The translations under genes and the position numbers were made by a program. Under the pieces are notes generated by a model. It did not search any database, had not been told where the DNA came from, and worked only from the letters and a program-made list of their open reading frames with translations. 64,000 nucleotides of DNA from Bacteroidota bacterium. GTDB lineage: Bacteria > Bacteroidota > Ignavibacteria > Kryptoniales > JAKASW01. Positions 52,075 through 64,000 of the stretch are shown in pieces. The stretch lies in NCBI GenBank assembly GCA_021825585.1, contig JAKAGT010000024.1, forward strand, positions 1 through 64,000, in the 5' to 3' direction. Within the stretch, counting starts at the first letter, position 1; the number at the start of each line of letters is the position of its first letter.

Positions 52075-52800
52075 ATGCGCAAACATGTCGGCGAAACTGG
52101 TGAGCGGGCACACACGCTGAGAGAGTGGCCCGAGAGTGAAAAGCCGCGGGAGAGACTTCTTTCGCACGGGGCGACAAAACTGACAGATGTCGAACTCCTC
52201 GCAATCCTGCTCAGGACAGGGGCGCGGACAAAAGAGCGCTCTCGTACGGCAATAGATGTGGCGCGGGAGCTTTTGATGTCGTTCGAAAATTCGCTCGCAC
52301 TTTTGTCGATGCGCGACGCGCTGGAGCTTGCAAACACGTCGGGGATAGGAAAAGTGAAAGCCGTTACACTTGCTGCCGCGTTTGAAATCGGAAGGAGGAT
52401 GCAGAGCCTGCCGGGCAACGATGCGCCGCTCCTGAATAATCCCGAAGCCGTCCACAAGTTCATAATGAGAGACTTTGCCGGCGAGAAGAGAGAGGTTTTC
52501 AAGGTAATAGCTCTCAGCACCTCCGGCCGAGTGAAGCGCGTCAAGACGCTGACTGAAGGGACTCTGAGCGCCAGCCTCGTCGACGCCAGGGCGGTTTTCA
52601 AATTCGCGATACTCGAAGAAGCGGCGAGCATAATCGTTGTGCATAACCATCCCAGCGGGAAGCTCGATCCGAGTAAAGAGGACATCCAGATCACCAAAGA
52701 TCTCGTCTACTCAGGCGGGTTCCTGGACATTCCTGTCCACGACCACCTTATCGTCGGTCCGACAGGATATCTGAGCATGAAAAACGCGGGATACGTGTGA
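52075..52800 (+). CDS. radC: RadC-family JAB-domain protein
   Basis: 241 aa. N-terminal UPF0758 helices (ERLLSHGATKLTDVELLAIL), then the JAMM metalloprotein core with IIVVHNHPSGKLDPSKEDI. Full length. Despite the name, its role in repair is not settled. Confidence 0.93.
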   Translation: MRKHVGETGERAHTLREWPESEKPRERLLSHGATKLTDVELLAILLRTGARTKERSRTAIDVARELLMSFENSLALLSMRDALELANTSGIGKVKAVTLAAAFEIGRRMQSLPGNDAPLLNNPEAVHKFIMRDFAGEKREVFKVIALSTSGRVKRVKTLTEGTLSASLVDARAVFKFAILEEAASIIVVHNHPSGKLDPSKEDIQITKDLVYSGGFLDIPVHDHLIVGPTGYLSMKNAGYV

Positions 52801-53247
52801 AGCAAAGTCAAAAGTGAAAAGTCAAAGGTCAAAAAACAGATGTCAGAAGCCGGAGGACAGAGTTCGGAAACCAGAAGTCAGAGGTCAAAAGACTGTTACA
52901 AATGAAGTCCAGCGATAAGAAGACGGGGAAAACAGAGGTTGAGCAGGCTGGAGAATTAAAAGAAGTATAACGGATGGAGGAGAAGCCCGAAGGGCTGACA
53001 TTATTATGGCATAAATATCAAAACAAGAAGGAACCCTGAAGGGGTGACATTGCGAAGTGACTAGGAGTAAGGTGTGAGGAGAGAAGAGACGTAGACCGGG
53101 AGTCGGCGGGCAGATGCTCGCCCTCGAGTGAATCTCGGTGATGTGGACCGCCCGACCGAGACGAACGGTTGTATCAAATCCGAACACCGAATGTATCGGA
53201 ACCGAACACTCGTGAGATAGGCCGCATTCGTGAAACAGCAGAATTGA
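52801..53247. repeat. Repeat-rich intergenic region
   Basis: Contains word-like AAAGTCAAAAGTGAAAAGTC type runs (52800-52900), then CCCGAAGGGCTGACATT at 52986 and CCCTGAAGGGGTGACATT at 53034, 48 nt apart, which resemble dispersed repeats of FCB genomes. No gene is supported here. Confidence 0.6.
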
Positions 53248-53337
53248 GTGAATTTCAATCGAGATTCTCGGTTGGTTTTGCTGGCACGGCTGTTGCTCTT
53301 TGATTGCCAGTATACGGAAAACCTGGGGGTGAAGCAC

Positions 53338-53586
53338 ATGGCAATGGAGTCGGAAACTGAGGGGTTTGAGCCTGAAGGGTCAAGAGCACTGAGCGGCATG
53401 CAGGCGAGGGTAATGGAGCTCCTTGCAAGCGGTCTGAACAGGAGACAAATCTCGGAGGCTCTGAACATCAGTCTCCATACGGTGAACACTCACGTGGAGA
53501 GGATCTACAGGAAGCTCGGTGTGCACAACGCGGCATCGGCGGTTGCGCTGGCATTGACAAAAGAGGAGCCGGTGAGTGACAACTGA
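53338..53586 (+). CDS. LuxR/GerE-type helix-turn-helix protein
   Basis: 82 aa consisting almost only of a LuxR C-terminal HTH: GMQARVMELLASGLNRRQIS, EALNISLHTVNTHVERIYRK and LGVHNAASAVALAL. No receiver or ligand domain. ATG 53338 follows GGGGGTG; an earlier start has no domain. It sits just upstream of the phase-variable lipoprotein cluster, on the same strand, and may regulate it; this is only positional. Confidence 0.85.
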   Translation: MAMESETEGFEPEGSRALSGMQARVMELLASGLNRRQISEALNISLHTVNTHVERIYRKLGVHNAASAVALALTKEEPVSDN

Positions 53587-53614
53587 GGATAGGGATGTCA
53601 GTAATTCCACCGAC

Positions 53615-53644
53615 TTGTCGAAGGGGCGCTCGGATCTTATCTTG
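53615..53644 (+). promoter_or_regulatory. Conserved promoter of module 1
   Basis: TTG-N20-TATCTTG, 102 nt before the lipoprotein ATG. The same spacing and motif recur in all four modules, close to the Bacteroidota -33/-7 promoter pattern. Confidence 0.55.
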
Positions 53645-53746
53645 TTTGGTCGTGAGTTTGTGGCAGAGTTGAACCTGACCGCGGCGAGCTCAAAAGGCGC
53701 CTGACGGTCGGTTACGAATAGATACAGACAAAAATCGGAGGCTGAA

Positions 53747-54905
53747 ATGAAGTACCATCTTAAGCAAGCAAGCAAGCAAGCAAGGTATATTCCTTCTAAT
53801 ACTTACCGTTGCCATACTCCAATCGTGCAGTCAGAAGCTGAACGTCTCGCAATCGCCTACCGCGCCGAGCGCGTCTGAAAAGGCGGATAGCACGGCGAAA
53901 AGCGGTGCAGGTAAAGGTAAGGTCGATATAATCCAACCACTTGTCCCGTATTACACACAGGGAGCAACGTACAACGGTGGAACAATTTGGCAATTTGATC
54001 ACTGGGTACCGGCGCCGGGGAAGTATTTAATAATCTATCCTGGCGGAGTGGTCACGGACTATTCAAAACTCATCAACTACTACGGATTTACATACGTATG
54101 CACTAATGTCGAGACAGTTATGGGCGAAGTCGGCGGAGCCCATGTATTGTACCCAATCAAGTTTAATGGTTATGCAGGCCAGATAAGTATCTGTCAACAG
54201 TATAACGTAAAGGTATACTTAGCGGATGAACCGTTATACACTGCAGACTCGATGCAGGTGCTTGTTAATGCGGTTCATCAAGCCGGCGGAGTGCTTTGGG
54301 CAGACGATTATAACGAGCAAGTAGAAGTGATTGGAGGCATTGTTATCCATGAACATCTGGCAAACTCGACGGCACTCAACGCGGCAGATGTGGTTGGGAC
54401 TGACATGTATGAACAGACTGCTGTAATAGCCGGCGTTTCATACCATTACATTACCTGTTCGGATGTCATCACTGAATACGAGAATTTTTCCTCGTTGTTC
54501 GGACAGAAGTTCCAATTTGCTTGGGAGGAATATGACGCAAATTACGATTGCTTCACATCGGCTTTTTCCTACCTCGCCACTCACAACATGAACGCCTGCG
54601 GATTGTATTGTGCTGGCGAACAGAACGGATGGAACACCTCGGTTCCATCCGACTGGAGTCATGTGGACGCATTCTGCCAGAACGCCGAGAATGCGGGTTT
54701 CCTGGATAGAGTCGATCAACTTTACAATCAGACCTATGTGTGTCAACAGAATGGTGTCAGATTCACGCCGATGAATCTCGCCGATTGCTACGGGGTCTAT
54801 GAGAACGGCGGCTATGACCGCCCGACTACATCTGATGAACCCGGGCAGGTACTATGCTGGGCCTACACTCCCGTGGCAACAGGCCAGTATGAAACAATTC
54901 CGTAG
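53747..54905 (+). CDS. Phase-variable lipoprotein, module 1 (OFF)
   Basis: Begins MKYHLKQASKQA over a 5-unit AAGC tract, then reads out of frame and stops at 53876-53878 (43 aa). In the other frame the sequence is intact to 54905: a lipoprotein signal (FLLILTVAILQSC), an Ala/Ser-rich linker, then a domain with VYLADEPLYTADS, LWADDYN and YVCQQNGVRFTPM. Removing one unit (or adding two) restores a 384-residue lipoprotein. It is the most diverged member. GGAGG precedes the start. Confidence 0.85.
53762..53784 (+). repeat. AAGC tetranucleotide tract, module 1
   Basis: Five AAGC units plus AAG, starting at codon 6 of the lipoprotein gene. Out of frame with the rest. Confidence 0.95.
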
Positions 54906-55009
54906 CGTTTGCTCAAGATTGGCCGGAGCTGAGCGAGCACATGTATACTTAATTGTGCAGCAATTAGCACTCATGTCAACCGTAAGGTCGCAAACTTTGG
55001 AGAATGAAA

Positions 55010-55606
55010 ATGAAGCCAATAATGTTCTTCCTTGCCCTGTCAAGCTTAGGATATGCTCAATCTCAGAAAAGTCCTCCGCCGAGCCAGGATTCCTTGTCGC
55101 AGTCGCCGGCGCGTAAACTCGACGCGGGTCCGCAGCTCGGGCTGGGACTGGGGGCGGGAACAGGGATTGCGTTCTTCTGGATGGGAGGCTGGCAAATCAA
55201 TAATAACTACGCGATAGAGGGAAGGTACCTTGCCACAAGTGGGCCCGGCTTCTTTTTTACGGAGGGATGGTCTGCAATAATCCGCCGGCAGATGCCTGAC
55301 ATCGACTGTTACTTGTTTGCCGGACCGTCGGCGGAGTACTCGGCGTTCAATACCATAGCAGTTCCAGCCAATCCATACCGTGATTACGTTACCAGACATT
55401 ATTCCTCGTATTATTTAACTCTGGGAGGCGGGTGGGGTCTCCACTGGTTCTCGGTGGAGCTGGATGCGATGGTACCCGTTCAATCTCTGATGCGGACTCC
55501 GCCGCGCCCGCCGCTCACTGACAATCCGGATGCCGGCCAGTCGATCAACCCGTTCGCAGTTTACCTGGTACTCAAGCCGCACCTGGATTTGTTTTTCTTC
55601 CGTTAG
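55010..55606 (+). CDS. Small exported barrel-like protein, family 2, module 1
   Basis: 198 aa with a signal peptide (MKPIMFFLALSSLGYAQSQ). KLDAGPQLGLGLGAGTGIAF, DIDCYLFAGPSAEYS and GGGWGLHWFSVELDAMVPVQ recur in two paralogues (57884, 61379). Alternating hydrophobic residues and an aromatic C-terminus (DLFFFR) suggest an outer-membrane beta-barrel. ATG 55010, not 55004, is preferred: GGAG upstream and alignment with paralogues. Confidence 0.8.
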   Translation: MKPIMFFLALSSLGYAQSQKSPPPSQDSLSQSPARKLDAGPQLGLGLGAGTGIAFFWMGGWQINNNYAIEGRYLATSGPGFFFTEGWSAIIRRQMPDIDCYLFAGPSAEYSAFNTIAVPANPYRDYVTRHYSSYYLTLGGGWGLHWFSVELDAMVPVQSLMRTPPRPPLTDNPDAGQSINPFAVYLVLKPHLDLFFFR

Positions 55607-55675
55607 CAGAAGGCACGGATTGGCTTGAATCAGAGAAACGAAGTGGAATGAAGGCATATCGGTAATTCCACCGAC

Positions 55676-55705
55676 TTGCCAAAAGGGCGCTGAGATTTTA
55701 TCTTG
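55676..55705 (+). promoter_or_regulatory. Conserved promoter of module 2
   Basis: TTG-N20-TATCTTG, 102 nt before the lipoprotein ATG; same layout as the other three modules. Confidence 0.55.
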
Positions 55706-55807
55706 TTTGGTCGTGAGTCTGTGATGGAAACGAACCTGAGCCCCCCGAGTTCAAATGGCGCTCAAGGGACACTTACCAATAGACACAGACAAAAATCGGA
55801 GGCTGAA

Positions 55808-57073
55808 ATGAAGTACCATCTTAAGCAAGCAAGCAAGCAAGCAAGCAAGATAGTCCAGCTAATTCTTGCAGTTGCAGTTTTCGGGACTTTTCTTTTTGAA
55901 TCATGTAGGCAGTCAAAGATCGGGGAGCCGGTTTCTCCCAGTTCTTCAGTGAATAGCTCTGACTCGATAGGGCTCGGTCCGCAAAATGGGAAGAAGAGCG
56001 GAAAAGATAGTGTGTCGACTATCAAGCCCCAGGTTCCACCGCCGGGGAGCGGCTACATGGAGGGGAGCCAGTATGTCGCGGACTATTACCGGTTCAACGG
56101 CGTTTATCTACCGGAAGACTCGGCAAAGCACAAGTATCTCATGTTTATGACCTCAAACGTGAGTAGCGACAAATTCGAAACGATGTACCAAAAGTATTGT
56201 TTCAGAAGAGTTGTTTGTGGCGACGGAGATATTAACGCGCTCGAATCCGCGCACTTTTCTCGGAATCAACTCCTGATAAGTATTGGAAACGGCGGGGGGT
56301 GTGGATTCCCCTACCCATCACCCGGTCCCGGGTTGTTATCCAATTGGCGCCATTTAGTCGACACGTACACAGGTAATGTGCTGGGGTACATGTATGATGA
56401 GCCATCAGGATGGACTAATGGCGACACTATGAAGGCGGTCGCTGATTATATTCATACCAGGAATGGTTCCTTGTGGTTGGATGACTATGACACTGGTGTG
56501 ATAAGCTCAGTGCCATACTTCGCTTATCACAATTGTCATCTCGCTGACGATGTAATGCTGCCGAACGGCGATTACATCATGAACGATGCTGATAACGCGC
56601 AAGCAACGAATGGGTGGGATGGAATTGGGTGTTATATAGTCGACGATTTCAATGAGTTCCAGTATTGGTTCGGCGCGAAGTTTAATTCGATTTTCACGAT
56701 GAACGGGTTTCCAAATGAAGCCAGCCTCGTTAGCTGGGTGCAGTCTCATCCAAGCATTTCCAACTATGCAATTTATCTCACGAGTAGCTGGTCCTGGGGC
56801 GACCTGGACAGTTTCATGGGCTATGCTGACCAAGCTGGTTTCTTAGGACATCAATATCAGGTCTATTATTATACTTACGTTTGTCAGACAAACTCCGTAA
56901 AGTTCACACCGCCTAGTGCGCCGGACGCGGGGGCAGGCAAACCGGCATATTATGGTGTGTGGACAAACAACGCGTATTACATGGGCCCCGTGGATCCTGG
57001 CACGCCGGGTGCGGTGCTCTGCTGGGCGTTCCAGTCCGGTGTAGCCACAAGCCAGACCGTTAATGTCTATTGA
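55808..57073 (+). CDS. Phase-variable lipoprotein, module 2 (ON)
   Basis: 421 aa. Starts MKYHLKQASKQASK over a 6-unit AAGC tract, then a hydrophobic stretch and lipobox ending at Cys33 (TFLFESC). The mature part has VLGYMYDEPSGW, LWLDDYDTGVIS, YIMNDADNA, CYIVDDFNEFQ and a C-terminal YVCQTNSVKFTPP. ATG 55808 behind CGGAGG is chosen over an upstream in-frame start because all four copies begin here. Downstream sequence is offset by one base relative to copies 1, 3 and 4, so six units are in frame here. Confidence 0.9.
   Translation: MKYHLKQASKQASKIVQLILAVAVFGTFLFESCRQSKIGEPVSPSSSVNSSDSIGLGPQNGKKSGKDSVSTIKPQVPPPGSGYMEGSQYVADYYRFNGVYLPEDSAKHKYLMFMTSNVSSDKFETMYQKYCFRRVVCGDGDINALESAHFSRNQLLISIGNGGGCGFPYPSPGPGLLSNWRHLVDTYTGNVLGYMYDEPSGWTNGDTMKAVADYIHTRNGSLWLDDYDTGVISSVPYFAYHNCHLADDVMLPNGDYIMNDADNAQATNGWDGIGCYIVDDFNEFQYWFGAKFNSIFTMNGFPNEASLVSWVQSHPSISNYAIYLTSSWSWGDLDSFMGYADQAGFLGHQYQVYYYTYVCQTNSVKFTPPSAPDAGAGKPAYYGVWTNNAYYMGPVDPGTPGAVLCWAFQSGVATSQTVNVY
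55823..55849 (+). repeat. AAGC tetranucleotide tract, module 2
   Basis: Six AAGC units plus AAG; in frame with the lipoprotein. Confidence 0.95.
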
Positions 57074-57086
57074 ACTGGAAGTCGCA

Positions 57087-57794
57087 ATGAAACGTGGGCT
57101 ATTCCTCTTATTGTTGTTATGTGTGATTTTCCTGGCGTCCGCTGAAAAGGCGGCCGCGCAGGACAGCACAAATCGCTTTACGTTAGATGCCGCCGGTCCG
57201 CGATCTCGAGCTGATAGCGCGCATTCTGCACAGGCAGACACTGCGTCCCTCAGGTGGCCATCTTTCATCGGAGGCGATCTCTTTGTCACCGGGGAACTCT
57301 ACGCACTTCACTTCAATGGCCCATCTTCAATAGAATCAGCATTTGGTCTTGGGGCCGAGGTAAGAATTAAGTCGGTCTTTCTGGGATTCATCATGGGTTT
57401 TTCGGGGGACGAGGGAATTCCCGGCCTGCATGGCATTCCATCGCTGGAGAATTTCCCGTATTCCCCTGATTTCACCTACGCCTCATTATATGCTGGCATA
57501 CAGGTCGGCGAGTACAGGATCGAAGCCGGAGAAGTCAACGCCAAGCACTACGCGGCAGATATGGCGGCCGGTTATCAGGACACGCGTTATTCCAGCGCAT
57601 TTGTTGGAGTAAGCCGGAGATTCAGCAAGGTCTATCTTATCGAACCGGTTGCGAAAATAGTGTTTCCCCTCTCTGCCACATATCCGATCCTCTCCGCACA
57701 GTCGGGCAGTAATTTTCCGTGGGTCACCAGGCATTATCGGCTGTCAGACTTCTTTCTTTCACTGGGCGTGAAGGTTGGAATCGGCGTCAACTAA
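57087..57794 (+). CDS. Small exported protein, family 3, module 2
   Basis: 235 aa with a signal peptide (about 1-27). GGDLFVTGELYALHFNG, GLGAEVRIKSVFLGFIMGFS and YRIEAGEVNAKHYAADM are shared with 60003 and 63483. Probably a beta-barrel outer-membrane protein. Begins 13 nt after the lipoprotein stop, so probably co-transcribed. Confidence 0.78.
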   Translation: MKRGLFLLLLLCVIFLASAEKAAAQDSTNRFTLDAAGPRSRADSAHSAQADTASLRWPSFIGGDLFVTGELYALHFNGPSSIESAFGLGAEVRIKSVFLGFIMGFSGDEGIPGLHGIPSLENFPYSPDFTYASLYAGIQVGEYRIEAGEVNAKHYAADMAAGYQDTRYSSAFVGVSRRFSKVYLIEPVAKIVFPLSATYPILSAQSGSNFPWVTRHYRLSDFFLSLGVKVGIGVN

Positions 57795-57883
57795 GGGGTG
57801 CGGTTTGCCGAATGAAGGGGTGATGGTGTAGATCCCTCCTATTGACGGTCGTTGCATTCACTGTTAGATTTTGGGGACAAAAG

Positions 57884-58495
57884 ATGAAGTCAACATTGTT
57901 GCTGCTTGTTCTGGCAAACTTTTGTTTCGCTCAATCTCAGATAAGTCCCTCTCCAAGCCAGGACTCCTTATCGCTGTCGCATGTGCATAAGCTAGATGCA
58001 GGTCCGCAGGTTGGGTTGGGACTTGGAGTCGGAACGGAAATAACTCTTTTTGGGATGGCAGGTTGGCAATTCGACGACAACTTTGCGATTGAGGGAAGGT
58101 ATAATGCTACAAGCGGGCCCGGCTCATTCTTATTCATCGGGGGAACCGTTGGATGGTCGCTTCTGGTTCGCAAGCAATTACCTGATATCGACTGCTACCT
58201 GTTTGTGGGGCCCTCCGTAGAGAATTCGAGTTTCGCTGCGGAGGATCCCGCGAACCCTGTGGGCGTTGGCCTTACCAGGAACTATTCGGCCTATTATGCT
58301 TGCTTGGGAGCCGGTTGGGGGCTTCACTGGTTCTCCGTGGGGCTGGATGGGATGGTACCCGTTCAATCTGTGATGCGGACTCCTCCGCCTCCGGCGTACC
58401 GAGTCAACGAGAATCCGCCAGCCGGAAAAGCGATTAATCCGTTCGCGGTCTACCTTGTAGTCAAGCCGCACCTGGATTTGTTTTTCTTTCATTAA
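57884..58495 (+). CDS. Small exported barrel-like protein, family 2, module 2
   Basis: 203 aa with a signal peptide (MKSTLLLLVLANFCFAQ). Paralogue of 55010 and 61379. Its last about 60 codons (from 58316) are nearly identical to those of 61379, showing a recent duplication or gene conversion. ATG 57884 follows GGGGAC. C-terminus DLFFFH. Confidence 0.8.
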   Translation: MKSTLLLLVLANFCFAQSQISPSPSQDSLSLSHVHKLDAGPQVGLGLGVGTEITLFGMAGWQFDDNFAIEGRYNATSGPGSFLFIGGTVGWSLLVRKQLPDIDCYLFVGPSVENSSFAAEDPANPVGVGLTRNYSAYYACLGAGWGLHWFSVGLDGMVPVQSVMRTPPPPAYRVNENPPAGKAINPFAVYLVVKPHLDLFFFH

Positions 58496-58523
58496 CGGAT
58501 GGGGTGTCAGTAATTCCACCGAC

Positions 58524-58553
58524 TTGCGGAGGCAACTACAAAGCGGTATCTTT
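58524..58553 (+). promoter_or_regulatory. Conserved promoter of module 3
   Basis: TTG-N20-TATCTTT, 100 nt before the lipoprotein ATG. Confidence 0.55.
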
Positions 58554-58653
58554 TTCTGTCGTGAGTCTGTGATAGAATCGAACCTGAGCGCCGGCAGTTC
58601 AAAGGGCGCTTGAGGGTTGTTTACCAATAGATACAGACAAATCGGAGGCTGAA

Positions 58654-59896
58654 ATGAAGTACCAACTTAAGCAAGCAAGCAAGCAAGCAAGGAGTATTCT
58701 TCTTAATTCTTACTCTTGCTCTGCTCCAATCATGTAATCAAAAGCTCAACCAGTCGGAGTCGCCGACGGCGCCGAGCGCGTCTGAGAAAGTGGATTCAAC
58801 ATCGAAGAGCGTTGCAGGCAAACACAAGTTGGTTTCAGGTGTCTCGCCCATGATACCTTCCTATCAAGCGGGGGCTATTGCGTACGGCGGGACCGAGTGG
58901 TTTCTGGTGAACTGGGTACCGGCGACGCCTCACAATGGGACATACACCATGATTGACCCCACAGATGGTTACACACCGGATGAACTCCAGAAATTCCATC
59001 AGTACTATGGCTTCACTAGGGCGATATCTGATTCAGCATTTGTAGGAGAGTGGGAATCTGCAGGGTTCGATTCTCACCAGATTCTTGTATCAATCGGATA
59101 TAACAACAATGGCTCCGCCGATTTAAACAGTGACTGGCAAGGCATTGTCGACTACTTCCAGAGCCAGGTCCTTGGATATTCCTTTGACGAACCATCCGGC
59201 GATGGGGGAAAAGGAATATCGGCATCACAAATGCAATCGATCGAAAATTCTGTCCACGCGGTCGGCTCCAAATTGTGGCTTGATGATTACGATACGGGGG
59301 TGATACCGTATAGCCTTTCTAACCAACTGCAAGACGTCGTACGTGAATCCCACATTTGGGGGGAAGCGATGCTCGAAAACTCGGATTATATTATGTGCGA
59401 CGCCGACAATGCAAAAGCAACTGATGGGGAGGATGATATCGGATGCTATGTTGGAGAGGACTATAATGAATTTCAGAGCGCGTTCACTGGCCAGCCGGCG
59501 TTCAACACGATATTCACAAGGCCGCCATACTCCGTCAGAAACATCGAGAGCGTCGTTAATTGGATTGTTGCCCATCTGGGGGTTCCAATAAACACCTTTG
59601 CGGTGTGGCTCCCATCTGGATGGACGTGGGCGGATGTGGACGGTTTTGCCCAGTATGCCTACCAGGCGGGCTTCCTTGGCCAGTATCAGTTACTTGAGCA
59701 GGCAAAGTATGTGTGCCTGGAGAATAACGTTACATTTGTCCCTACCTCATCCGACGTACAGGGGACGTACTATGGCGTCCTAAATAATGGGGTCTACACT
59801 GGCCCCGTCGATCCATCAACGTCCGGCGCAACGGCATGCTGGTCAATTCAAACTTGGGTATCCCAGAACCATTACCAAACAGTCTACGCGCAGTGA
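58654..59896 (+). CDS. Phase-variable lipoprotein, module 3 (OFF)
   Basis: Reads MKYQLKQASKQARSILLNSY and stops at 58735-58737 (27 aa). The remaining frame (to 59896) is intact: ATG 58790 is only an internal Met. Loss of one AAGC gives a 412-residue lipoprotein like module 4. Conserved motifs are VLGYSFDEPSGD, LWLDDYDTGVIP, YIMCDADNA, GCYVGEDYNEFQ and YVCLENNVTFVPT. Confidence 0.9.
58669..58691 (+). repeat. AAGC tetranucleotide tract, module 3
   Basis: Five AAGC units plus AAG, one unit more than module 4, which is otherwise identical here; out of frame. Confidence 0.95.
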
Positions 59897-60002
59897 GAAA
59901 GGCTTGCACACTTGGCCTAGCTCCAGTCGACGGCTGTTAAATTAAGTAAATGACTCGGTAGCGGTGCGTTCGTGTCACCGAAGATAGATAGAAGGAGATA
60001 AT

Positions 60003-60683
60003 ATGGAAAGCATGGCAAAATCTAAAGTAAACCTGTTTCTCGCGTTTGCTGCTATGAGCCTCCTCTCGATCGGCGCGAATGCGTTTGCCCAAACCGACTC
60101 GAGCCGCGTATCATCCATAGATTCGAGCGCTTACAATCCGAAAGCGATGGCGGAAGGGCAAAAGTGGTTTGGAAATCATGTAGGAGCCGATCTATTTGTC
60201 ACCGGTGAAGCGTACACGTTTCACTTCGGGAGAGTCGGCTTTTTGTCGCTGACCGGGGAAGGCGGCGTTGGGGCGGAGTTACGGTTCAAACCTCTATTCG
60301 CGGGTTTTGTCTATGGCTTGTCAGGTAGTGAGATGCGTGACAGGCCGTCGGGTCCCTTCTCTTGTTCATCATTTTACGTCGGGGTTATTGTTAGTGGCTA
60401 CCGCGCCGAAGTCGGAGAGGTTTACGGCTCATTTCTTGCCGCTGATCAAGACATGCCTGATGTGAGTTTCAAAACTTACTTTGCAGGTCTAAGCAGGCGA
60501 TTCGGTGGAAACGCGTTCTTAGAGCCAGAGATTCAAATCATGTTCCCGGTCGAGGCTGGAACCTACGTGAATGCCCCGCCAGGTAACAGTTACACCAATG
60601 TGAGCATCGAGCATTACACTATGGGTGATCTATTCTTCTGCTTCAGCGTCAAACTGGGCCTTGGAGTTGGATATTGCAGATGA
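60003..60683 (+). CDS. Small exported protein, family 3, module 3
   Basis: 226 aa, signal peptide up to about FAQ. GNHVGADLFVTGEAYTFHFG, GVGAELRFKPLFAGFVYG and YRAEVGEVYGSFLAAD align with the other family-3 proteins. Ribosome site AAGGAG is 5 nt before ATG. Probably outer-membrane barrel. Confidence 0.8.
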   Translation: MESMAKSKVNLFLAFAAMSLLSIGANAFAQTDSSRVSSIDSSAYNPKAMAEGQKWFGNHVGADLFVTGEAYTFHFGRVGFLSLTGEGGVGAELRFKPLFAGFVYGLSGSEMRDRPSGPFSCSSFYVGVIVSGYRAEVGEVYGSFLAADQDMPDVSFKTYFAGLSRRFGGNAFLEPEIQIMFPVEAGTYVNAPPGNSYTNVSIEHYTMGDLFFCFSVKLGLGVGYCR

Positions 60684-60765
60684 TAACACAATAAGAGAGG
60701 AATGAATCGGAGCGGGCCGCCTTTATCTTTTAGGTCGTCATACAATTGAAGAAGGACAGATCTGG

Positions 60766-61278
60766 ATGCGGAGGTTAAGAGTGAAGCTGGGCGCTGAATT
60801 GATGACCGTCGGAGTTCTAACTATTTCTCTGTTGGGGTCCTTGCCCGCGCGAGCTCAGTCGGCGAGGGACAGCAGCAGCCATTACTGTCGGGACGCGGTA
60901 TATGTTGAACTGGCGGGAGCAGGAGGACTATACTCGTTCAACTTTGACTACCGGATCACAAGAGAAGCGGGTTTTAGGGTAGGGTTTACGTCATGGTCCG
61001 ATTTCACCGGTTTACCCGTGACAGCAAACTACTTACTAAACTGGCACGCCCATCATTTGGAAATTGGAATCGGTGTGATTATCGGATTGGCAACTCTTGG
61101 TGGACAATCATTCGTTAGTGGTGGCCAGAGTACGCCTCAGGCCATAGGCACGGGGACGCTTGGTTATAGATATCAACCCGACGATGGCGGCTTCGTATTC
61201 AGAATTGATTACACTCCTCTTCTCGAGCCTAGACTCCTATACTCCTGGGGCGGCGTCTCGTTAGGGTATGCGTTCTAA
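60766..61278 (+). CDS. Small exported barrel-like protein
   Basis: 170 aa, signal peptide to about RAQS. DAVYVELAGAGGLYSFNFDY, then GFRVGFTSW and a C-terminal GGVSLGYAF with final Phe, all characteristic of an outer-membrane beta-barrel of about eight strands. Found only in module 3. Not clearly related to families 2 and 3. Confidence 0.78.
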   Translation: MRRLRVKLGAELMTVGVLTISLLGSLPARAQSARDSSSHYCRDAVYVELAGAGGLYSFNFDYRITREAGFRVGFTSWSDFTGLPVTANYLLNWHAHHLEIGIGVIIGLATLGGQSFVSGGQSTPQAIGTGTLGYRYQPDDGGFVFRIDYTPLLEPRLLYSWGGVSLGYAF

Positions 61279-61378
61279 CGAAGGTCAAAGGAGAGTTAAC
61301 TGAAAAGTCAAAGGTCAAAATTGAAAAAGGTCAAACGGTAGAGGGCTGGATATTGCCATTATGTCTTCGAGGGAATAG

Positions 61379-61978
61379 ATGAAGTCAATATTGTTAGTAC
61401 TTGCCCTATTAAACCTTTGTTTTGCGCAATCTCAGGATGCGCGTCCGTCGGTCCGGGACTCCTTATTGCGGTCGGATGTCCATAAGCTCGACGCGGGGCC
61501 GCAGGTCGGGGTCGGACTTGGGGGAGGAACGGGGGTCGTTTTTTACCTGATGGCAGGTTGGCAAATTGATAATTACTACGCCATAGAGGGAAGGTACAAC
61601 GTGACAAGCGGACCGGGCTTCACTTTGACCTCGGGATGGTCTGCGATAATCCGCCGGCAGCTGCCGGCCATTGACTGTTATCTTTTTGCCGGACCGGCGG
61701 TCGAATATTCAGTATTCAATGTCCTGGATCCTGCCAACCCCTACGGGGATTTTTTCAGGAGGGAGTACACGGCTTATTACTTAAGCCTCGGGGGAGGCTG
61801 GGGGCTTCACTGGTTCTCCGTGGAGCTGGATGGGATGGTACCCGTTCAATCTGTGATGCGGACTCCTCCGCCTCCGGCGTACCGAGTCAACGAGAATCCG
61901 CCAGCCGGAAAAGCGATTAATCCGTTCGCGGTCTACCTTGTAGTCAAGCCGCACCTGGATTTGTTTTTCTTTCATTAA
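61379..61978 (+). CDS. Small exported barrel-like protein, family 2, module 3
   Basis: 199 aa with a signal peptide (MKSILLVLALLNLCFAQ). Paralogue of 55010 and 57884; the C-terminal 60 codons come from the recent duplicate. Ends DLFFFH. The gap before it (61290-61360) carries GGTCAAAGG-type word repeats. Confidence 0.8.
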   Translation: MKSILLVLALLNLCFAQSQDARPSVRDSLLRSDVHKLDAGPQVGVGLGGGTGVVFYLMAGWQIDNYYAIEGRYNVTSGPGFTLTSGWSAIIRRQLPAIDCYLFAGPAVEYSVFNVLDPANPYGDFFRREYTAYYLSLGGGWGLHWFSVELDGMVPVQSVMRTPPPPAYRVNENPPAGKAINPFAVYLVVKPHLDLFFFH

Positions 61979-62006
61979 CGGATGGGGTGTCAGTAATTCC
62001 ACCGAC

Positions 62007-62036
62007 TTGCGGAGGCAACTACAAAGCGGTATCTTT
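62007..62036 (+). promoter_or_regulatory. Conserved promoter of module 4
   Basis: TTG-N20-TATCTTT, 100 nt before the lipoprotein ATG. Confidence 0.55.
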
Positions 62037-62136
62037 TTCTGTCGTGAGTCTGTGATAGAATCGAACCTGAGCGCCGGCAGTTCAAAGGGCGCTTGAGGGT
62101 TGTTTACCAATAGATACAGACAAATCGGAGGCTGAA

Positions 62137-63339
62137 ATGAAGTACCAACTTAAGCAAGCAAGCAAGCAAGGAGTATTCTTCTTAATTCTTACTCTTGCTC
62201 TGCTCCAATCATGTAATCAAAAGCTCAACCAGTCGGAGTCGCCGACGGCGCCAAGTGTTTCGGCTAAGGCAGATTCCACGTCTCAAACCGGCGCGAGTAA
62301 ACGGAAGGCGGTGTCCAGCGTCATACCTCTGATACCGTCTTATCAGCAAGGGGCAATTGCGTATGGGGGGACTGAGTGGTTCCTCGTGAACTGGGTGCCG
62401 GCGACTTCTCACAATGGGACATACACTATGGTCGATCCCAACGGTTGTTCAAGTGATCAATGGTCGCAACTCTACCAGCACTATGGTTTTCAATGCGCCA
62501 TCGTCAATGTTAATTATGTGTCCGAACTCACCTCAGTAGGATTCAGCAGAAGTGACCTCCTCGTGGGGATTGGATCTCACGGTCTTGATGCCAATTGGCA
62601 GGATGAACTGAATCAATATACCAATACTGTCATGGGCTATTTCATTGACGAGCCATCAGGATTCATCGATGGTGCCACGATGCAGAACGTGAAGACCGCT
62701 GTACACAACGCGCGGTCCACGCTTTGGTTGGACGACTACGACACTGGAGTGATATCGAGCATACTATATGTCGTCCAACACAACTATCACCTCGCTGACG
62801 TCCCCATGTTGGATAATGCTGATTGTGTAATGTGTGATGCGGATAATTCGTATTGGGTAAGTGGAGAAGGGGGAATCGGGTGTTATGTTGGAGAGGATTA
62901 CAATGAGTTCCAGGGATGGTTCGGTGGTAGTGGCCAACCGCTTTTCAATACGATATTCACGATGCCACCTTATACCAATCAGAACGTACCTAGTGTTGTT
63001 GACTGGGCTTCATCCCATCTTGGAAATCACATTGCCTTCTTTGCGCTTTACCTCCCGGCAGGATGGAGCTGGTCAGATGTAGATGGTTTTGCACAATATG
63101 CCTACCAGGCGGGCTTCCTCGGCCAGTACCAGTTACTTGAGCAGGCCAAGTATGTGTGTCTGCAGAACAATGTAACATTCGTGCCGACGTCATCTGACGT
63201 TGAGGGAACATACTACGGTGTGTTGGATAATGGTTCCTACACGGGCCCTGTCGACCCGTCCACATCGGGAGCAACAGCTTGCTGGTCGATTCAAACATGG
63301 GTTTCTCAGAATCAGTACCAAACGATATACGCACAGTGA
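62137..63339 (+). CDS. Phase-variable lipoprotein, module 4 (ON)
   Basis: 400 aa. Starts MKYQLKQASKQG with a 4-unit tract, then the hydrophobic core and lipobox ending at Cys26 (LALLQSC). Mature part: GAIAYGGTEWFLVNWVPAT, VMGYFIDEPSGF, LWLDDYDTGVIS, CVMCDADN, GCYVGEDYNEFQ and AKYVCLQNNVTFVPTSSD. Pairs with module 3. The DEP motif after a hydrophobic strand resembles the acid residue of TIM-barrel glycosidases (inference). Confidence 0.9.
   Translation: MKYQLKQASKQGVFFLILTLALLQSCNQKLNQSESPTAPSVSAKADSTSQTGASKRKAVSSVIPLIPSYQQGAIAYGGTEWFLVNWVPATSHNGTYTMVDPNGCSSDQWSQLYQHYGFQCAIVNVNYVSELTSVGFSRSDLLVGIGSHGLDANWQDELNQYTNTVMGYFIDEPSGFIDGATMQNVKTAVHNARSTLWLDDYDTGVISSILYVVQHNYHLADVPMLDNADCVMCDADNSYWVSGEGGIGCYVGEDYNEFQGWFGGSGQPLFNTIFTMPPYTNQNVPSVVDWASSHLGNHIAFFALYLPAGWSWSDVDGFAQYAYQAGFLGQYQLLEQAKYVCLQNNVTFVPTSSDVEGTYYGVLDNGSYTGPVDPSTSGATACWSIQTWVSQNQYQTIYAQ
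62152..62170 (+). repeat. AAGC tetranucleotide tract, module 4
   Basis: Four AAGC units plus AAG; in frame with the lipoprotein. Confidence 0.95.
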
Positions 63340-63393
63340 ACGTATCTGCAGGCGTTGACGGTGTTGCTTTGAAAGCTGTAAGTTTATGGAAAT

Positions 63394-63418
63394 AGCCCCG
63401 CCAATCATAGGCGGGGCT
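63394..63418 (+). other. Strong hairpin between lipoprotein and family-3 gene
   Basis: Perfect 9-bp stem AGCCCCGCC/GGCGGGGCT with a 7-nt loop. Not followed by a U-run, so not a classical terminator; could attenuate or protect the transcript. Confidence 0.7.
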
Positions 63419-63482
63419 CGAATTTAGGCGCTTTTTTGCCGCTGTCATCCGATCAGTAATCCTTTAACAACGGGGACGAAAA

Positions 63483-64000
63483 ATGATAAAGACTCAAAAA
63501 TCGATCACCGGAATTATCCTTGTCACGATGTTTGCAATTCTTCTTCCATTTTGCCGCAATTCAATTGCCCAACAGGATACGACCCGCTCATCTCGCCCGG
63601 ACACACTGGGGTACAACCCAAATGCGATTGCGGAGGGCCAGAAGTCCATCGCGGACTTCTTTGCCAATCACATCGGAGCCGACCTTTTCGCGACGGGTGA
63701 ATACTATGGCTTCCACCTCGGCGGACCTTCATCTACGACAATGGGGGGAGGGCCGGGCATTGAGCTCCGGTACCATCCCGTTTTTCTGGGTATTATAGCC
63801 GGGGTCTGCGGCGATGAGGGGATACCGGGTCTCTACCAGTCTGACAACACAGAAGGTGGAACAAGGACATACAGCTACACTTCGATCTACGGGGGAATCA
63901 GTATCGATGGTGTTCGGTTTGGAGCAGGAGTCATAAACGCCAGCAACAGTATGTGGGTAACCAATAATCCATCCTCAAGATACACTTCAGCCTTTTTGGA
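63483..64000 (+). CDS. Small exported protein, family 3, module 4 (partial)
   Basis: Starts ATG 63483 behind GGGGACG and runs off the window (172 codons seen). Signal peptide to about NSIAQ; ANHIGADLFATGEYYGFHLG, GPGIELRYHPVFLGIIAG and VCGDEGIPGLY align with family 3. So module 4 repeats the lipoprotein-family 3 order and the array continues. Confidence 0.82.
   Translation, partial: MIKTQKSITGIILVTMFAILLPFCRNSIAQQDTTRSSRPDTLGYNPNAIAEGQKSIADFFANHIGADLFATGEYYGFHLGGPSSTTMGGGPGIELRYHPVFLGIIAGVCGDEGIPGLYQSDNTEGGTRTYSYTSIYGGISIDGVRFGAGVINASNSMWVTNNPSSRYTSAFL

What the first reader, a model, noticed from the sequence alone, without database searches (positions are those of the whole stretch)
53747..63339. 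Four tandem lipoprotein genes switched by a coding AAGC repeat
Each gene begins with MKY[HQ]L followed by a tract of 4 to 6 AAGC units encoding KQAS-type residues just before the hydrophobic part of a lipoprotein signal peptide. Copies 1 and 3 (5 units) are out of frame and end after 43 and 27 codons, while the remainder of each gene is intact and conserved. Copy 2 (6 units) and copy 4 (4 units) are in frame. Unit number alone sets ON or OFF. This is the known signature of slipped-strand phase variation, described mainly in host-associated bacteria. I know of no described case with this protein family in this group.
Basis: partly seen in the sequence, partly recalled or inferred. Interest (0 to 1): 0.93.

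Follow-up and report, generated by a model that had tools for sequence, protein, structure and literature searches.

The report
Repeat-switched family of surface lipoprotein genes
A little-known Bacteroidetes bacterium carries at least eight related lipoprotein genes, each starting with a short AAGC repeat whose unit number decides whether the protein can be made; half of them are currently off but otherwise intact, as in the phase-variable genes of pathogens, although nobody has yet watched these ones switch.

Summary
Four lipoprotein genes begin MKY[H/Q]L + (AAGC)n with n = 5, 6, 5, 4. Copies 1 and 3 are frameshifted, copies 2 and 4 are open. The array continues past the window (n = 4 ON, n = 5 OFF) and has relatives on other contigs (n = 4 ON, n = 5 OFF). 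These eight genes hold every AAGC tract of 4 or more units in the 4.97-Mb genome, and 0.84 Mb sampled held no other tetranucleotide repeat of that length. Copies 3 and 4 are identical for 327 bp before and 85 bp after the tract and differ only by one unit. Copies 2 and 6 are identical for 251 bp after it, but have different leaders and 6 versus 5 units. All OFF frames are intact over 380-422 codons. Stop codons close both other frames just upstream. Best reading: translational ON/OFF switching by tract length, through slippage and also recombination at the tract. The mechanism is known (H. influenzae lex2A uses the same repeat). The gene family matches no Pfam, NCBIfam or PDB sequence; its low-confidence model is a TIM barrel. 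Main caveats: 4-6 units predict slow switching, and no reads or second strain could be examined. New member of a known kind.

The parts
53747..54905 (+). Lipoprotein copy 1; (AAGC)5 at 53762-53781; OFF (ATG frame ends after 43 codons); intact remainder is in frame +1 from 53763
53762..53781 (+). AAGC tract of copy 1, 5 units
55808..57073 (+). Lipoprotein copy 2, 421 aa, ON with 6 units; body of the second type (IVQLILAVAVFGTFLFESC)
55823..55846 (+). AAGC tract of copy 2, 6 units
58654..59896 (+). Lipoprotein copy 3; 5 units; OFF (27 codons); intact 408-codon frame from 58670
58669..58688 (+). AAGC tract of copy 3, 5 units
62137..63339 (+). Lipoprotein copy 4, 400 aa, ON with 4 units
62152..62167 (+). 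AAGC tract of copy 4, 4 units
53587..53761 (+). Shared leader of about 170 bp (5' flank, GGAGG ribosome site, ATGAAGTACCATCTT) of copy 1; 75-82% identical copies precede copies 2-6 and the C6 copy
   Evidence: alignment
55652..55822 (+). Shared leader of copy 2
58497..58668 (+). Shared leader of copy 3 (identical to that of copy 4)
61980..62151 (+). Shared leader of copy 4
55004..55606 (+). Small secreted companion protein, 200-aa family, between copies 1 and 2
   Evidence: no Pfam match
57063..57794 (+). Small companion protein of 243 aa, aligned with the 226-aa family, overlapping the end of copy 2; predicted outer-membrane beta-barrel
57887..58495 (+). Small companion protein, 200-aa family, before copy 3
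60003..60683 (+). Small companion protein, 226-aa family; modelled as a roughly 10-stranded barrel (low confidence)
60766..61278 (+). Small companion protein, 170-aa family
61379..61978 (+). Small companion protein, 200-aa family, before copy 4
53338..53586 (+). 82-aa LuxR-type (GerE) DNA-binding protein next to the array; possible regulator, link not shown

Best explanation
These are lipoprotein contingency loci with translational ON/OFF control. The AAGC tract lies between the start codon and the hydrophobic core of the lipoprotein signal peptide. It reads KQAS in every frame, so it encodes a basic, tolerant n-region of variable length. A change of one unit shifts the frame and the ribosome then stops within 13-43 codons, so no lipoprotein is made. 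Gain or loss of units restores the frame. Unit number changes by slipped-strand mispairing. Recombination between paralogues at the tract also joins a leader of given n to a body needing another n. Each copy switches independently, giving a combinatorial surface repertoire. SHOWN: frames, unit numbers, intact OFF frames, restriction of the tract to this family, paralogues differing by one unit, and the mosaic junction at the tract. INFERRED: reversibility in living cells, surface exposure, sugar or other ligand binding by the barrel, and selection for switching. Rate: probably low to moderate because tracts are short.
For: Eight genes carry 4-6 units; 4 are ON and 4 OFF. All four OFF copies keep uninterrupted frames of 380, 408, 422 and 399 codons. 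About 4.6% of random substitutions there would create a stop, so at 95% fewer than about 64 substitutions in all (1.3% per site) have built up since they went OFF, whereas the family is far more diverged. Two OFF copies compared with each other (copy 3 and C26) show dN/dS 0.13, although dS is near saturation. Copies 3 and 4: 327 bp left and 85 bp right identical, tract 5 versus 4. Copies 2 and 6: 251 bp right identical, tract 6 versus 5, leaders only 84% alike while copy 6's leader is 93% like copies 3/4, placing a crossover at the tract. Both other frames are closed by stops just upstream (TGA overlapping the ATG; TAA or TAG before the tract) in all eight. No other AAGC tract of 4 or more units in the whole genome; none of any tetranucleotide in 0.84 Mb sampled.
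Against: No population data: no mixed reads and no second strain. 4-6 units is short; 5-11 tetranucleotide repeats gave rare, if any, switching in an engineered H. influenzae gene (PMC2992063). The genome encodes a MutS-like protein. Two related loci with only 2 units (C77, and G006 C70) are out of frame but intact, and a hypermutable tract cannot explain those. Copies without any tract exist and are simply ON (C36).
Confidence: 0.74

Rival explanations
1. Slow birth and death: tract length changes are ordinary rare mutations. OFF copies are young pseudogenes or a silent store from which gene conversion can rebuild active copies, with no selected switching.
For: Short tracts (PMC2992063). Clear degraded relatives exist: the C57 copy is truncated, the C37 copy has lost its start region near a transposase-like end, G011 has a stop near its N-terminus. 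Paralogues exchange sequence.
Against: Four of four OFF copies with tracts of 4 or more units carry no second lesion. The same tetranucleotide is kept pure and at the same place in eight diverged paralogues in a genome otherwise almost free of such repeats.
Confidence: 0.2
2. Programmed ribosomal frameshifting (for example +1 at CUU AAG C, resembling the Ty1 site) makes full-length protein from the apparently OFF copies.
For: Copies 1 and 3 and both 2-unit loci need the same +1 shift, and keep intact frames; CTT AAG C precedes the tract in copies 1-6.
Against: Copy 6 and C26 would need the opposite (-1) shift. The 2-unit loci and C26 lack the CTT codon there. ON copies carry the same leader and need no shift.
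Confidence: 0.04
3. Assembly or consensus error in tract length.
For: The genome is in 88 contigs and copies 3 and 4 share long identical blocks that could confuse an assembler.
Against: Tracts are 19-27 bp, short enough to lie within a single read, and not homopolymers; each is anchored to a distinct body within 85 bp for copies 3 and 4. OFF states occur at loci on three separate contigs.
Confidence: 0.04

Closest known systems
Haemophilus influenzae lex2A and oafA (GCAA tetranucleotide phase-variable genes)
   Same: Same repeat by cyclic permutation (GCAA = AAGC). Unit number modulo 3 sets ON or OFF (lex2A 10 and 11 OFF, 12 ON: PMC6479036). GCAA tracts in H. influenzae likewise encode a hydrophilic, positively charged peptide (PMC2651432).
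   Different: There the genes are LOS glycosyl- and acetyltransferases in a host-restricted pathogen with about 10 or more units. Here they are tandem lipoprotein genes of an unrelated lineage with 4-6 units. No homology between the proteins is claimed.
Combinatorial lipoprotein phase variation in mycoplasmas
   Same: A family of surface lipoproteins switched independently; the class is listed in the review PMC11868660.
   Different: The review describes the mycoplasma system as shuffling of lipoprotein variants by site-specific recombination; here the switch lies inside the signal-peptide coding sequence.
Bacteroides invertible promoters of capsule and SusC/SusD loci
   Same: Phase variation of surface components in the same broad phylum (PMC11868660).
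   Different: DNA inversion by an invertase; no inverted repeats or invertase are involved in the reading proposed here.

Membership tests
SSR-mediated translational phase-variable (contingency) locus | Tandem repeat with unit length not divisible by 3 inside the 5' coding region | tested here: met
SSR-mediated translational phase-variable (contingency) locus | Repeat number sets the reading frame; ON and OFF alleles both found, OFF alleles otherwise intact | tested here: met
   across paralogues in one genome
SSR-mediated translational phase-variable (contingency) locus | Repeat longer than expected by chance and concentrated in such genes | tested here: met
SSR-mediated translational phase-variable (contingency) locus | Repeat number varies within a strain or between strains of the species | not testable with these tools
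   No second genome of the species; 12 same-genus genomes have no AAGC tract of 4 or more units. Variation seen only between paralogues
SSR-mediated translational phase-variable (contingency) locus | High-frequency reversible switching | not testable with these tools
   Published rates for short tracts argue for slow switching (PMC2992063)
Bacterial lipoprotein | Basic n-region, hydrophobic core, cysteine at a lipobox | tested here: met
   Alignment...LLQSC or FESC with invariant S25-C26 in all 11 sequences; by eye, no signal-peptide predictor run
Any named protein family (Pfam, NCBIfam, PDB sequence) | Match above curated cut-off or E below 0.001 | tested here: not met
TIM-barrel (beta/alpha)8 fold, glycoside-hydrolase-like | Structure match | tested here: inconclusive
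   AlphaFold2 pLDDT 56.6, pTM 0.56; the 50 best of 98 PDB hits at E <= 0.001 are very largely TIM-barrel proteins, including GH30 xylanases, but query-normalised TM is only 0.24-0.38

The most novel reading that the evidence does not exclude
An uncultured Bacteroidetes bacterium, with a genome otherwise almost free of such repeats, has built a dedicated combinatorial switch: at least eight independently frame-switched TIM-barrel surface lipoproteins, in which the tract serves both as slippage site and as crossover point between two body types needing different unit numbers, so that recombination as well as slippage resets expression.
Probability: 0.35. Interest if true: 0.72.

Novelty: new member of a known kind. 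Interest (0 to 1): 0.56.

Why it matters
Repeat-driven phase variation is known almost entirely from host-associated bacteria; a 2025 review (PMC11868660) names ocean and soil bacteria as a gap. An eight-gene switch family in an uncultured lineage, with the repeat confined to that family, would let one ask what such switches do outside the known pathogens (phage escape, glycan choice, predation) using existing metagenomic reads. I could not establish the habitat of this organism.

Tried and rejected
Alternative start codon in the ON frame of OFF copies: rejected; TGA overlaps the ATG in frame +1, TAA or TAG closes frame +2, and no ATG, GTG or TTG lies in between. Programmed frameshift: different copies would need opposite shifts. 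Structured RNA element: Rfam found nothing at 53000-64000. Known protein families: none. Variation between species: other genus members lack long tracts; G006 has only 2-unit loci. Selection on the C77/G006 pair: uninformative, the segment was recently exchanged between the two genomes. Literature searches for such a system in this group found none, though only open-licence papers are held.

Full report
WHAT IS THERE. Shuffles of the window give no such matches. Read from the ATG, copies 1 and 3 stop after 43 and 27 codons, while copies 2 and 4 run 421 and 400 codons. The window ends inside the array. Copy 5 (4 units, ON) and copy 6 (5 units, OFF after 13 codons) follow on the same contig, and relatives with tracts lie on contigs C6 (4 units, ON), C26 (5 units, OFF) and C77 (2 units, OFF). 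A copy on C36 has no tract and is open. One on C57 is truncated. One on C37 has lost its start region beside what looks like a transposase end at the contig edge.

MORE THAN CHANCE. The whole 4.97-Mb genome has AAGC tracts of 4 or more units only in these eight genes. In 0.84 Mb sampled (window, contigs C26, C77, most of C73 and part of C36) no other tetranucleotide repeat reaches 4 units, and hardly any mono-, di- or trinucleotide tract is long. None of 12 other genomes of the genus has a tract of 4 or more units.

THE SWITCH. The leader is ATGAAGTACCA[T/A]CTT after GGAGG, then the tract, then the hydrophobic core and lipobox. AAGC repeats read KQAS in all three frames, so units can be added without a stop, and KQAS suits a basic n-region. 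Frame +1 is closed by TGA overlapping the ATG and frame +2 by TAA or TAG before the tract, in all eight genes, so an OFF copy cannot be rescued by upstream or alternative starts. Two body types exist: copies 1, 3, 4, 5 need n = 1 mod 3 after this leader, and copies 2 and 6 need n = 0 mod 3.

EVIDENCE THAT UNIT NUMBER MOVES. Copies 3 and 4 are identical for 327 bp before and 85 bp after the tract, yet have 5 and 4 units: one is OFF, the other ON, and the tract is the only difference in that stretch. Copies 2 and 6 are identical for 251 bp after the tract but have 6 and 5 units. Their leaders are only 84% alike, whereas copy 6's leader is 93% like those of copies 3 and 4, so copy 6 is a recombinant with its junction at or near the tract. 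Slippage and recombination can thus both change the state.

EVIDENCE THAT OFF COPIES ARE NOT DEAD. All four OFF copies with tracts of 4 or more units keep open frames of 380-422 codons. About 4.6% of random substitutions there would create a stop, so absence of any stop bounds the total substitutions since they went OFF at about 64 in 4827 bp (95%), about 1.3% per site, small beside the divergence of the family. Two OFF copies compared with each other show dN/dS 0.13, though dS is near saturation. Copy 1 has only 42% protein identity to copy 4, so it is an old gene recently silenced.

WHAT THE PROTEINS ARE. No Pfam, NCBIfam or PDB-sequence match. A low-confidence AlphaFold2 model (pLDDT 56.6, pTM 0.56) shows alternating strands and helices followed by a C-terminal beta region. 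Foldseek returns very largely TIM-barrel enzymes, with low TM-scores. Invariant residues include D171-E172-P173 and D200-Y201. A carbohydrate-active or ligand-binding role is a guess. Small companion proteins of 170-243 aa sit between the copies; one family is modelled as a roughly 10-stranded barrel (pTM 0.59), suggesting outer-membrane partners.

DISTRIBUTION. Strong relatives occur only within the genus: two in G006, one in G011, fragments in G003 and G008; hits beyond it are weak. The G011 relative sits on a contig deposited as 'Bacteroidetes bacterium isolate DBS2-1.bin131'. In relatives, the place downstream of the radC-like gene holds other DNA, so the array occupies a variable site.

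LIMITS. Reads and second strains were not available, so switching itself is unproven. Published work reports rare, if any, switching for 5-11 tetranucleotide repeats in an engineered H. influenzae gene (PMC2992063). With 4-6 units I expect slow switching, perhaps on the scale of populations rather than cultures. The 2-unit loci (C77; G006 C70), both out of frame yet intact, are not explained; the C77 and G006 C17 copies lie in a segment recently exchanged between the two genomes, so their identity says nothing about selection. Habitat is unknown, so the contrast with host-associated bacteria is not established.

VERDICT. The architecture is a textbook coding-SSR switch in an undescribed lipoprotein family, extended by recombination at the tract. 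Membership in the class 'SSR phase-variable locus' meets every feature testable from one genome and lacks the defining population test. New member of a known kind.

Noticed in passing
window 52075-52800 and C63:70798-71220 (L168:6799-7221): A radC-like gene (named from its sequence by eye) borders the array on the left, and a truncated copy of it (residues 51-190, 85% DNA identity) lies beyond the right end, followed by a MerR-like reading frame. The array may be an island inserted or duplicated next to radC; the site holds other DNA in relatives.
   Followed up: partly
window 53338-53586; L039:6437-6655; L167:10015-10176: Small LuxR-type HTH genes lie near the lipoprotein copies at three loci (two in this genome, one in G006).
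   Followed up: no
L041 (G000:C37), left part of the reversed contig end: A lipoprotein copy lacks its start and tract; the DNA in their place at the contig end encodes what looks like a transposase C-terminus followed by a hairpin-like GC-rich repeat.
   Followed up: no
L042:2265-6748 versus L167 (G006:C17): A stretch of about 4.5 kb including a 2-unit lipoprotein copy is nearly identical between two species whose neighbouring DNA differs by over 10%: recent exchange between species.
   Followed up: partly
window 52804-52891: Degenerate 7-bp repeats (AAAGTCA, 'AGTCAAAGGTCAAA') just after the radC-like gene; similar AGTCAAAGG strings follow the same gene in relative G010 (L158).
   Followed up: no
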